NCBI RefSeq assembly: GCF_000004075.3
Contig: NC_026660.2
Span: forward strand, 10,726,001-10,790,000
From: Cucumis sativus
Lineage: Eukaryota > Streptophyta > Magnoliopsida > Cucurbitales > Cucurbitaceae
DNA: 64,000 nt
Direction: 5' to 3'
Each line of letters starts with the position of its first letter. Positions within the stretch are counted from its first letter, which is position 1. Position numbers and translations under genes: made by a program. Below the pieces are notes generated by a model. The model was not told where the DNA came from and made no database searches. It saw only the letters and a program-made list of their open reading frames with translations. This document shows, piece after piece, positions 33,133-38,426 of the stretch.

Positions 33133-35965
33133 TGTTCATTCTCAATTGTTTTAAAGAATAGACGACTGACTTCGGTAGAACAAATATATGTAAATAGGTT
33201 GACTTGTCTATTATCTTTGTAGTTGAAAGAAAACAGGGTAGAGTGGTGAACAACATTTTGGTCTTCCATTTTAAGAAACGGATAGATTGAACAATTTAGA
33301 CACAATACAATTCATGAACTTACGGAAGCTCTTGGCTTAGATTTGGAGATTTCTGAAGGAGAGTTAAGTTTAGAACATTACGTTATGTGGCTAAAGAAAG
33401 AATGTACTTGTTTGCTGGACAATTGAACCTTGATTATCTTGCTAGTTAGGTTCTAATGCTAACTTGTGTCGTTAATCTGCCAACACTTTGTTGGTGTTGG
33501 TTTCCTGCTGTTTGATCGATCTAAAAGTTAGGTCTATTTGGTAGTATTTCTTATTCCTAGTTTTTCTTTCTTTCTTTTCTTTTTCTTCATAGAGAAAAAG
33601 TTGAAAATGCCTTTCATAACTAACACAAAAGCACAACATTACCAATTTCTTCTTTATTAAGGAAAGAAAATTAATGGAAGTTAAACCAACCGAACTTATT
33701 CAAGTCTATGGACTAATGAAAACTTCGTTTCTGTATGTTATGGTTTGGTTCATCTATTTTAATGAAACTTTGGTTACAATGATATCAAAATTTGTTGGAT
33801 AAGACTTGGATCTCCTTGCTTTTTACTTTTCTTCTCTCTCACTCTACTTTTGGAAAAGAAAACAACCATGAAAATCGAGAAACTAGAAAGAAAAGAATGC
33901 TCTAATCAAAATTGATGTCGGTTTGGGTTAAAATCAGTTTGGTTCAATGGTTACACTTTCTCAAATAAAGCAAAATATCATGTTAGATTTTAGGTTTTTC
34001 TAAGGCTAAACTAGAAATAATTTAACTTATCCTACCAATAGTGTATATAGTGAAAATTTAAGGAGACGTTTGACAACCGATATGTAATTAAGTTGGATAG
34101 GTAAAAAAACTCACTCATCGTCTGAGTGTACCAACAATTTGAGATGTTTATTAACTCATTGTTCGTGTTATTCACATTTTTCACCTTGTTATTTGCATAA
34201 ATTCTATTAACTACTCTCTTATAATAATTATCGGCTCAACTCATTTTTTAAAAGATAATTCTAACCCAATAAACATTCTTTAAAGTAGATATCAAAACAT
34301 TGAGTTGCACGAGTTAGCTAGTTTAAATCACATGAAACACAATATTTTTTCTTGAAATATTAATCTCTCATTTTCAGTCATTTTTCACTCACCGACCAAC
34401 TCATACCCTAGTAAACAAAATAAGAAAAAAAAAGTGTTGAAGTTGTACACCAGCCACGATCACCTTGCATGCAATCAAAGGCAAGCGGTTAGAAATTATA
34501 TTAAATTTATCTTCATCCATCTACTTGAACTTTTGAATTTAAAATAATCAACAAACCAACTAAATTTTAGTCAAAACAATACTTGGTTTCGTAATAATCT
34601 AATTCAGCTATGATTCTGCACAGTAACCGAACCGTTTACACCATTATTCACAAATTTGATTACATTGTGCTATCAAATGAAGGAATCTTTCCAAAATCTG
34701 AAAATAGAAAGAATTCTTGTGGTTTTGGATAATAACAAGGAGGGAGGGAAGATCTTTTGAACTGGATGCTTAACAATGGTGAAATGAAAGGACATTGTTT
34801 TAAACGAAAGGAATATTGTTGGCCGATGGGACAAAAAAAATATATCTCTACTATTTTATTTGCAGCTTTTATATGATAAACTGTATAATTTACCTCTTTG
34901 CTTTTACTTTTACCAAATTTGACTTTGGAGATTCAGAAACAATGGAATCACGTTTTCAATAAAGTAAAGTTCTCTGCCTACTGAAAGCTAGGCATAATCT
35001 TATAAATGTTTTGTGGAGAACCTTAGCAACTTTTTTTTCTTTGTCTTATTTCAAATTCAAATCTCAAATTCGTGAGATTCTCAAAGAGAAAAAAAAGAGA
35101 AAAGATTGCATGAGACCAACAGGTGGTCTATGTTATAGCAACTTTGAAACACAACACTTCTACTTCTGTATTGAGGACTAAATGAGAAAAGAAAAGGGAA
35201 TAGATTTACATGAAAATGTTTGCATAATTTAAAGTTTAATTTTAGATTTTTTAAAGAGGCATTTTCAAAATAGTAAAATAAATTAAAATATTTATAAGTT
35301 ATAGCAAAATTTTAGATTCTATCTATGATAGAAACTGATAGGAATCTAAAATTTTTCTATATTTTATCAAATTTGCTATTTTTGACAATTCATCTTTTTT
35401 AAATGTGATTTTTATGTAATCAAAATTAGGTTTGAGTGGTTAATAGCGTGTTTTAGAGTGATTTTAATTGTTTTAGAACAATCTCCAAACATGACATTAG
35501 ATGCAAAAAAGAACTAGATTTGATTTTTCTTAGACTCTAAGGAGCCATTTGAGTCCCAACTTCAATTGGGTGAAGTGTGTTATTATATCTCACGTTGTGG
35601 TTCTGCACCTCAAACACAAACTATTATAACCTAAAACCTATAATGATCACTGACTATAATAACTAACTCAGTGTCTCAACCATTCTTTGGATAACTGAAT
35701 TTGAAAACACCTTGAATTTTATTCGGATGGCATGATAAAACTACTATTATAGTACAATAGAAACCATAATGAGCGGATACATACCATTTAGCTTGAAATA
35801 TAAAGGCTGTATTCATACATTCAACTTCAAATCAACTTGCTCGAGTAAGGCAAATATTCTTCGGTAAGAATGAACAGCAAACTGACTAGAAATCAATGTC
35901 CATTCCACATAATTTACGGAACTAATTGCTTTAATTGAATAATTTGCATTATTTTGCAAAAATCA
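33133..35965. other. spacer between HDA9 and the tyrosine phosphatase (convergent 3' ends)
   Basis: No gene is supported. It contains the HDA9 3' UTR at its left end, a palindromic dispersed repeat (35260-35395) and MITE-like pieces at about 35420-35500 and 35540-35705. The sequence is otherwise AT-rich and low complexity. Confidence 0.55.
35260..35395. repeat. dispersed palindromic repeat, third copy
   Basis: AGATTCTATCTATGATAG and a facing GATAGGAATCTAAAA, with TAGCAAAATTTT left and TTGCTATTTTTGAC right, make a foldback of about 135 bp of the 18240-18437 family. Confidence 0.6.
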
Positions 35966-38426
35966 TTAATCTGAAATGTGTTTGTTCTCTGCTAAGATGC
36001 TTTCCAACAGTGATTCACAGGCATCTTCAAGCAAGTCCAGAACCTAAAGTGACACATTGCATTGTTCATCAGAAGGAACAAACTAATGGGCATTGAACAA
36101 GCATATAAAAAGTAGATTTTAAGTGGTAAAGAAATTAGACTACCAACTTGATGAACAATGAAAAGATATCATGCATGAGTACTGTATAATCAACTTGGTC
36201 TTAGTCAAAAGTTTCAGAAGATCTTTAGCATTCAAGCTAATGAAACTTGGCATTCATAGAATTGATCTTTTAATGAGATTACAGTCACACTAAATATGGA
36301 AGAAGGGGGAAGGTATTGTAATATTCATATAGAACCACTACATTATTCATGAAAAATTCCTCAAAATGACTTAAAATCCAAGAACTTCTATACAAATGAA
36401 TCCTTTTTTAAAAAGCTTTTTTTCCCCTTTTTGAGTAGTGAAATTATCCTTTTACACTTGTATTATTACCAATAACATCAAATACCACCATAAATTTGAT
36501 CATTCTCTCTCTCTCGATACAACTTCATCTTTTTTGTTAAATGACCACTCGTTTTAGTGTGCTTTTTTAGGTTCTTTTCAATCATGCTAAAAAACAAAAC
36601 AAAAAAGAGCATGATTGAAAAGAACACAAATACATGTATGAAAAAAAAGCAGTCATCTAACAAAAATGAAGTTATAGCGAGAGATGATCAAACTTTTTGT
36701 ATTTGATGTTTTGATTATATCAGGGTAAAATGATAATTTCACACTTAAAAAGGTGGGGGAACACGTTTTTTAAAGAGTTCATTTCTCTAGAGGGTTTTGA
36801 GTTTTACGTCCTTTCAGCAATTTTCCATTATTCACTTCAGAAGAGCAGTCATATGATATGACTGAACAGAGATAAATCACAGATTGCAGGTGCATTGCAA
36901 CTACATTTCTCCAGCAATTGTAGCTTAAAGAGTGTTACTCAAAACATATATAGAATCAGAGTCCCGATCAAAGAGATAGTTGCCTATTTTGTTTTCCCCC
37001 CACAGTCCGATCGTGTTTGGAGGTGATTTTGTAAAGGTCAAAATTAGTTGTCATGTTCAAAAGTAGCTCGAAACATTGCTCTAATAATTCAAAATTAATT
37101 TTAAAGGTGTGAAAATTGCATTTGAAACTGTAAGATGGAACCCTAAACTGATTTTGAGTGAATAAAAATGTGTTCTATAGTGATTTTAAATATGATAAAA
37201 ATTGATTTCAACCATTCTAAAATCACTGTTCAACATACATAAACATATTATAAACATATTTTAAAGTCTTGTTGGATTACCTTCTCAAAACCTTGCTGCC
37301 CTCCGTAATAAGGGTCCGGTACTTCGGTTTCGTCATGCTTTTTACAATAGGAGCACATTAACTTGACCTGACATTATGGCACCAGCATCTTTATGAAGAT
37401 CACAAGATGAAAATAATGGAAAACCATACGAAAACATAAACATCTCTCATTGAAGATCTTGTACTGACCTTTTTATGTGAATCAGGAGGAAGGCCATTCT
37501 TTGTGCACCAACGTTCAAAAGCCCCCAAAATATCCTCTATAGGAACAACAATAAAGACCCAGAAAACGAACAATTAACAAAGTTCAAGCTAATCTGGGAT
37601 GGTCGGATTGTTGTAATACACAGCACCAGCATAAAATTTTCCCCATAATACTTCTCCTACCTCTGTTTTGCTTGTCCATGGCAAGAATAAGATCAAAATT
37701 CACAAAATCGGATGGCTGGATTGGCCTCGAGATGGATGTTATGGCTATCCCACGTCGTTTAGAGGCTGCCCTCATTCTTGGGTCGGCCTCATTACCCTTG
37801 AAAAAGTAATCAAAATCACTTAGAAGTTAAAACCATAAAGAAACATTTGTTGCTCCTAAGAAATTATAGAGGTCGTTTAATTGCAGAAGAAACGAAGGAC
37901 GGAACGTTTTAATCAAATCTACAACAAGAAAAAGGCATCGAGAAATTCTATTGAGCAAATTCCAATTGAAAACAGATGCAATTACCTCATGATAACCAAT
38001 GGTACCAGCAGAATCGATAGTGAATTTGGAATCGAGATCCTTCTTCGTCACCAAGTTCCTGAATACTCCTTCAGCAGCTGGGCTTCTACAGATGTTACCT
38101 AAGCAAACGAAAAGCACAGAGAAAGGTTTTGTCTCTGTTTCTGAGCTTCTGGAAAGAGAAGAATCGGCCATGGAAGAAGCTACGAATGATGTTGAGAAAT
38201 GGGTTCGGCGAGAACTTCGTGAAGGATTGAATTTCTGAAGATGGGGGTATTTTATAGGTCGAAAAGCAATCAATGGCGAGACATTCAGAGATGAAGCAAA
38301 GCAGAGATGACAAAATGGCTTTACGAGATTTGCGTCAACTCTAAGCTGCAAATGCAAAGCCCTCATCACTGCTTTGGATGGAACTCTCAGATTATTGGTT
38401 CCTACAGAATCCCCTGAACTCTTCAA
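35966..38426 (-). CDS. low-molecular-weight protein tyrosine phosphatase, plastid-type leader
   Basis: Five exons join in frame to 269 aa: 37986-38426, 37661-37796, 37469-37536, 37281-37367, 35966-36043. Residues 1 to about 98 are a Ser/Arg-rich, weakly acidic leader like a chloroplast transit peptide. Then comes the catalytic P-loop VCLGNICRS with the CX5R pair C108 and R114. The general acid is D233 in the DPYYGG motif. The enzyme removes phosphate from phosphotyrosine or small acyl phosphates through a cysteine intermediate. The start chosen is the first in-frame Met of the long open exon; a second Met at residue 21 or one at 86 could also serve and would shorten or remove the leader. The last intron is 1.2 kb and holds a large foldback. 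Arabidopsis At3g44620 is the probable counterpart (recalled). Confidence 0.88.
36394..36784. repeat. long foldback (about 390 bp) in phosphatase intron 4
   Basis: The centre is GTTCTTTTCAATCATGCT facing AGCATGATTGAAAAGAAC, an 18-bp perfect pair around an A-rich loop of 19 nt. Pairing continues outward almost to the ends: TTTGTTAAATGAC faces GTCATCTAACAAA, CAACTTCATC faces AATGAAGTTA, TTTGATCAT faces ATGATCAAA, AACATCAAATAC faces GTATTTGATGTT, GTGAAATTATCC faces GATAATTTCAC, and AAATGAATCC faces GAGTTCATTT. Arms are about 185 bp each. It has no credible coding frame and no clear target duplication. It is either a foldback/Mutator-like MITE or a natural hairpin-RNA source. Confidence 0.85.
37012..37235. 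repeat. hAT-like MITE in phosphatase intron 4
   Basis: Ends TGTTTGGAGGTGATTTTG and TAAAATCACTGTTCAACA are inverted copies of each other. The inner sequence repeats TGATTTT/AAAATCA blocks. Similar ends occur at 32583, 35440-35500 and in the 21130-21290 stretch. Confidence 0.55.

What the first reader, a model, noticed from the sequence alone, without database searches (positions are those of the whole stretch)
36394..36784. Nearly 400-bp foldback in the tyrosine phosphatase intron
Both arms (about 185 bp) pair almost from end to end around a 19-nt A-rich loop, with a perfect 18-bp stem at the core. Read as RNA it would be a single long hairpin inside a transcribed intron. Such structures are either foldback/Mutator-like MITEs or sources of 21-24 nt siRNAs, and can be the raw material of young miRNAs.
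Basis: seen in the sequence. Interest (0 to 1): 0.7.

Follow-up and report, generated by a model that had tools for sequence, protein, structure and literature searches.

The report
Old Mutator-like foldback transposon in intron
The long hairpin in this plant gene's intron is real and is most likely the decayed remains of a small non-coding jumping gene that landed there long ago; it is an ordinary kind of thing, although it could in principle make small regulatory RNAs.

Summary
The foldback is real and longer than reported: about 476 bp (36350-36825), arms of 238 and 218 nt, 19-nt loop. A 9-bp direct repeat, CATTATTCA, sits exactly at both ends (36341-36349 and 36826-36834), the size of a Mutator-type target duplication. 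It lies in the last intron of a low-molecular-weight tyrosine phosphatase gene on the minus strand; the genome fits cucumber. A sequence profile made from 14 dispersed repeats of the same genome, window excluded, hits both arms in opposite orientation (55 and 25 bits; next best in the window 9 bits) and nothing in 29 control loci. A consensus query finds 33 diverged places, one of them this arm. Some relatives end in a GAAAATTGCCCAAAATGAC-like motif, which the ends here resemble. No second copy of the whole hairpin was found, and no relative showed a paired target duplication. The siRNA/miRNA option was not testable. Known kind, new copy.

The parts
36341..36349 (+). left copy of the 9-bp target site duplication CATTATTCA (10 bp with one mismatch if 36350 is counted)
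   Evidence: identical 9-mer at 36826-36834; in this register (spacing 476) only 3 of 63,350 window positions match over 9 bases, two of them one A-run
36350..36825 (.). foldback element, 476 bp (36351-36825 if the target duplication is taken as 10 bp)
   Evidence: self-inverted similarity 36349-36828, arm alignment, fold
36351..36588 (+). left arm / long terminal inverted repeat, outer end GAAAAATTCCTCAAAATGAC
36589..36607 (+). 19-nt A-rich loop
36608..36825 (-). right arm / long terminal inverted repeat, outer end (read inwards) GAAAATTGCTGAAAGGAC
36491..36606 (+). inner unit of the left arm, homologous to a dispersed repeat of this genome
   Evidence: profile R1 built from 14 other places: 55.0 bits, E 3.4e-16
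36604..36693 (-). same inner unit in the right arm, opposite orientation
   Evidence: profile R1: 25.4 bits, E 6.1e-7
36694..36744 (+). outer module of the right arm (TTTTTGTATTTGATGTTTTGATTATAT, then GGGTAAAATGATAATTTCACAC); the first motif also lies downstream of the inner unit at C4:2336060, C3:1380360 and C3:3998235
36826..36834 (+). right copy of the 9-bp target site duplication CATTATTCA
36044..37280 (-). last intron of the phosphatase gene, host of the element (GT at 37280-37279, AG at 36045-36044)
   Evidence: spliced reading frame across both sides
35966..36043 (-). last coding exon of the host gene ([25 protein letters not shown], stop)
37281..37337 (-). preceding coding exon of the host gene ([19 protein letters not shown])
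   Evidence: spliced 113-aa fragment matches PF01451 LMWPc, E 1.6e-17, 64.5 bits, cut-off 23.2

Best explanation
It is an old, non-autonomous foldback transposon (MITE) of the Mutator-like kind. A transposase supplied in trans from a Mutator-like element would have recognised the GAAAATT-type ends of two long inverted repeats and inserted the 0.48-kb element into the last intron of the phosphatase gene, duplicating 9 bp of target (duplication and ends shown; transposition inferred). The copy has since decayed by substitutions and small indels, so the two arms now pair imperfectly. It carries no gene. Because it is transcribed as part of the intron (inferred; transcription not tested), the RNA can fold into one long imperfect hairpin (shown in silico) that is normally spliced out with the intron; Dicer processing is possible but not shown.
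For: Hairpin far beyond chance. Exact 9-bp direct repeat at the palindrome ends: in this exact register 3 of 63,350 window positions match over 9 bases (this one plus two adjacent positions of one A-run); allowing 6 bases of slack at both ends, 219 of 63,350 positions, in 26 clusters. Both arms match, in opposite orientation, a profile built from 14 other places of the genome; 0 hits at E up to 1 in 29 control loci, 87,638 bases. Consensus query: 33 places including this one. Pattern counts against reversed controls: 19 v 0, 35 v 3 for the terminal motif. Near-perfect outward termini (at most 1 mismatch) in 4 of 26 relatives or flanking pieces scanned (L079, L102, L080, L075), and two of the 35 terminal-motif places (C6:3139879, C7:16558796) are ends of family loci. 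8 of 32 sources carry two or more units in opposite orientation within 400 bp. MULE transposase domains are present in the genome (151 matches).
Against: No second copy of the whole hairpin: the full query, the right arm alone and its 27-nt outer end find only this locus. No paired target duplication was found for the 5 relatives with a readable 3' end or for the 5' end of L085, and no relative was seen with both termini. The left outer end has two mismatches and an extra A against the relatives' motif. In most paired relatives the inner units diverge (- then +), here they converge (+ then -); only L085 shows the same outer-inner junction, so this copy is rearranged relative to most. No transposase domain among those compared lies nearer than 36 kb to a family copy. 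The profile is not wholly independent: its first member was found through an 18-of-19-base match to the hairpin core.
Confidence: 0.84

Rival explanations
1. The hairpin is (or also is) a working small-RNA source: the intron transcript is cut by Dicer-like enzymes into 21-24-nt RNAs that methylate or silence related copies, or act as a young miRNA. This works on top of the transposon origin.
For: Long hairpin on the transcript strand, -159.4 kcal/mol for 36350-36825, two perfect 18-bp helices, and 87 of 217 21-nt windows of the 5' arm with at most 4 unpaired nt on each side. Plant inverted repeats of MuDR-type MITEs often make 24-nt siRNAs (486 of 634 gene-near inverted repeats in Arabidopsis, review PMC12595863, passages seen). 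Eudicot MITE-miRNAs come mostly from Mutator (68.5%, PMC12550479, passages).
Against: No small-RNA data here. No Rfam miRNA family reaches its curated score (best MIR837, 32.9 bits against 117, E 2e-4 on the transcript strand; MIR2630 24.6 against 144). PMC12550479 reports no MITE-derived miRNAs in Cucurbitaceae (passage). The arms are diverged and bulged.
Confidence: 0.15
2. A composite: two copies of a dispersed repeat inserted or were duplicated head to head, without one transposition event creating the whole unit.
For: Relatives occur in mixed arrays (+ - + in L083, - + - + in L109), and most relatives are not strong foldbacks by BLAST.
Against: The 9-bp duplication lies exactly at the outer ends of the whole palindrome, and the pairing covers the outer modules and termini, not only the inner units.
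Confidence: 0.08
3. A MITE of another superfamily (for example hAT, 8-bp duplication).
For: Superfamily rests on the 9-10-bp duplication and the terminal motif; no transposase was linked to the family.
Against: Duplication is 9 bp exact; the ends are GAAAATT-like, as in relatives; hAT ends are typically C/TA(A/G)NG (recalled).
Confidence: 0.06
4. An inverted duplication of a protein-coding gene, as in the usual model of young miRNA birth.
For: Two long inverted arms around a short loop in a transcribed unit.
Against: The arms match a dispersed, non-coding, AT-rich repeat family; whole-genome queries with the hairpin and the right arm gave no other locus.
Confidence: 0.02

Closest known systems
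TIR-MULEs and Mutator-type MITEs of plants
   Same: long inverted termini (100-500 bp; PMC3903597, passages), duplication in the 8-11-bp range, no coding capacity, intron position, AT-rich
   Different: arms strongly diverged, whole element palindromic, no second full copy in the genome, no transposase linked
Mutator/Foldback elements such as Tm1 of root-knot nematodes (PMC3169594, passages) and plant foldback families (FARE of Arabidopsis, Tnr8 of rice; seen only as titles in that reference list)
   Same: nearly the whole element is inverted repeat; Tm1 has mostly 9-bp duplications; modular, rearranged arms
   Different: the arms here lack the tandem sub-repeats of Tm1; sequence relation was not tested
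Mu killer of maize (PMC3440606, abstract start seen in listing)
   Same: a transposon-derived inverted repeat that could be read through into a hairpin RNA
   Different: Mu killer is a large recent duplication of transposase sequence that silences MuDR; this is short, old, non-coding, with no silencing shown

Membership tests
Mutator-like MITE / TIR-MULE derivative | 8-11-bp target site duplication directly at the ends | tested here: met
   CATTATTCA at 36341-36349 and 36826-36834; not found in 5 relatives plus L085
Mutator-like MITE / TIR-MULE derivative | long terminal inverted repeats | tested here: met
   arms 238 and 218 nt, alignment score 200 against at most 84 in 967 controls
Mutator-like MITE / TIR-MULE derivative | termini shared with a family of the genome | tested here: inconclusive
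   right end begins GAAAATTGC, left end GAAAAATTCCTCAAAATGAC; relatives GAAAATTGCCCAAAATGAC; but the 27-nt right end is unique at up to 3 mismatches
Mutator-like MITE / TIR-MULE derivative | multiple dispersed copies | tested here: inconclusive
   33 places match a consensus of the inner unit and outer module; no other full-length copy found
Mutator-like MITE / TIR-MULE derivative | mobilised by a MURA-type transposase with matching ends | tested here: inconclusive
   151 PF10551 matches in the genome, nearest compared one 36 kb from any family copy (43 rows scripted, rest of the shown list by eye)
plant miRNA gene | precise 20-24-nt products from one duplex | not testable with these tools
   no small-RNA reads; Rfam matches all far below curated scores
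plant miRNA gene | stem with few mismatches around a 21-nt duplex | tested here: met
   87 of 217 windows with at most 4 unpaired nt on each side; not specific, any long foldback would do this

The most novel reading that the evidence does not exclude
The intron hairpin is processed into 21-24-nt RNAs that act on the host phosphatase gene (for example by methylating or slowing the intron) or in trans on the dispersed relatives, which would be a small-RNA-producing MITE hairpin in a plant family for which one survey reports no MITE-derived miRNAs.
Probability: 0.1. Interest if true: 0.5.

Novelty: new member of a known kind. Interest (0 to 1): 0.25.

Why it matters
Mostly as annotation: it turns a striking hairpin into a dated, bounded transposon insertion with a testable empty-site prediction. 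If small RNAs came from it, it would be a test case for MITE hairpins in Cucurbitaceae, where PMC12550479 (passages seen) reports no MITE-derived miRNAs.

Tried and rejected
Looked for high-copy siblings with the whole hairpin, the right arm and the right 27-nt end: only this locus. The tool warns that its DNA search skips very common words, so rarity is not proven.

Pattern GGGTAAAATGATAATTTCACAC gave 107 places against 5 in the reversed control, but the 29 non-window loci fetched from it do not match profile R1; most carry a GGGTAAAATGGTAATTTGACCC-like variant, so this motif alone does not define the family.

The pattern for the core 19-mer is weak by itself: 24 places against 10 in the control. 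The outer-module pattern gave 13 against 2; 7 of those places were fetched and only short matches were found in them, so they were dropped as chance; the family hits among the 13 are the window, C4:2336060, C3:1380360 and C3:3998235.

Target duplications in relatives L079, L075, L080, L076, L083 and the 5' end of L085: none convincing. MULE transposase near family copies: none within 36 kb among those compared (43 of 151 matches typed in, chosen by eye as nearest on each chromosome). Rfam: nothing above curated scores. Literature on cucumber MITEs/Mutator (listings only) showed no description of this element; that is absence in those three searches only.

Full report
What is there. The window lies at C6:10726001-10790000 of a 226,625,048-base genome in 88 contigs, with C1-C7 as the large contigs in the hit lists and C6 31,125,843 bases long. 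This fits cucumber line 9930 version 3: 226.2 Mb, 7 pseudo-chromosomes, super-scaffold N50 31.1 Mb (PMC6582320, passages seen); the species is an inference, not shown by a name. The hairpin is confirmed: z about -15 on both strands against dinucleotide shuffles, arm alignment score 200 against at most 84 in 967 random placements. It forms within the full intron fold.

Boundaries. Just outside lie two identical 9-mers, CATTATTCA (36341-36349, 36826-36834). In exactly this register 3 of 63,350 window positions have a 9-base match, one being this and two being neighbours in an A-run; with 6 bases of slack at each end 219 of 63,350 positions (0.35%, 26 clusters) do. Beyond the repeats no pairing continues (three 40-nt flank blocks score -18, 0 and -11). 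The ends read inwards are (T)GAAAAATTCCTCAAAATGAC and GAAAATTGCTGAAAGGAC.

Host gene. On the minus strand, exons 37799-37661, 37536-37469, 37337-37281 and 36043-35966 splice into a 113-aa fragment that matches Pfam LMWPc (E 1.6e-17). The element sits in the 1237-nt last intron (36044-37280). Expression was not tested.

Relatives. The core 19-mer at two mismatches gave 24 places against 10 in the reversed control, too weak by itself, but L034 led to a family: a 24-nt pattern gave 19 against 0, the L034 stretch 15 matches, and a 185-nt consensus 33 matches, one being this left arm. A sequence-only profile from 14 of these, window excluded, finds the two arms in opposite orientation with 55.0 and 25.4 bits; the next match in the window has 9.3 bits, E 0.062; 29 control loci give none at E up to 1. 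The relatives are 70-85% alike in most pairwise matches, so the family is old. In 8 of 32 sources (L059, L066, L083, L088, L099, L100, L107, L109) two or more units lie in opposite orientation within 400 bp; L107 is a clear second foldback (260 bp, 71%). The closest match to the left arm is L085 (72% over 132 columns).

Ends of the family. Downstream of the unit, L079, L080, L075 and L102 end in GAAAATTGCCCAAAATGAC-like termini with at most one mismatch (4 of 26 scanned); L076 and L083 end similarly. The motif occurs 35 times against 3 in the reversed control, and two of the 35 are ends of L079 and L075. That this is a typical Mutator-like end in plants is recalled; the 8-11-bp duplication and the 100-500-bp TIRs are from PMC3903597 (passages). 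Against this, no relative showed both ends or a paired duplication, and the right end is unique at three mismatches.

Anatomy and history (inference). Here the order is outer module, inner unit, loop, inner unit reversed, outer module reversed. In most paired relatives the inner units diverge instead of converging, and in the best linear relatives the outer module follows the 3' side of the unit. Only L085 shows the same outer-inner junction. The copy is thus a rearranged, secondarily palindromic form, as is common for foldback elements. The arms differ by K2P 0.19 over aligned columns; with a recalled rate of 7e-9 per site and year this would be about 14 million years if the arms were once identical, a rough figure since gaps flatter the alignment and the arms may have differed from the start.

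Function. The fold on the transcript strand has 362 of 476 nt paired, two perfect 18-bp helices and 87 of 217 21-nt windows with at most 4 unpaired nt on each side, so Dicer processing is possible. Rfam gives only sub-threshold miRNA matches (12 at E up to 1, best MIR837 32.9 of 117 bits), as any long hairpin may. Such inverted repeats commonly yield 24-nt siRNAs in Arabidopsis (PMC12595863, passages), but PMC12550479 (passages) reports no MITE-derived miRNAs in Cucurbitaceae. I take it as a passenger insertion, at most a weak siRNA source.

Verdict. Observation confirmed and extended; interpretation as a foldback/Mutator-like MITE supported; small-RNA role open. Known kind.

Noticed in passing
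window 37008-37245: A second dispersed repeat in the same intron (44 matches including itself, 68-82% to the others), with some copies in inverted pairs (C4:16129605 - and 16129736 +); looks like another MITE family.
   Followed up: partly
window 36723-36744: The motif GGGTAAAATGATAATTTCACAC has 107 near matches against 5 in the reversed control, mostly a GGGTAAAATGGTAATTTGACCC-like variant from other loci that do not match the family profile; a widespread repeat motif of unknown element.
   Followed up: partly
window 35262-35322: 61-bp match at 88.5% to L083:724-784 and a weaker one to L096; another dispersed repeat downstream of the phosphatase gene.
   Followed up: no
L107:355-614 (C3:34856900-34857700): A second foldback of the same family, arms about 71% alike over 271 columns.
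   Followed up: partly
genome-wide: About 27 MULE-domain matches share the same score (77.6 bits) and several the same 810-aa open frame, which suggests a recently amplified autonomous MULE unrelated to this old family.
   Followed up: no
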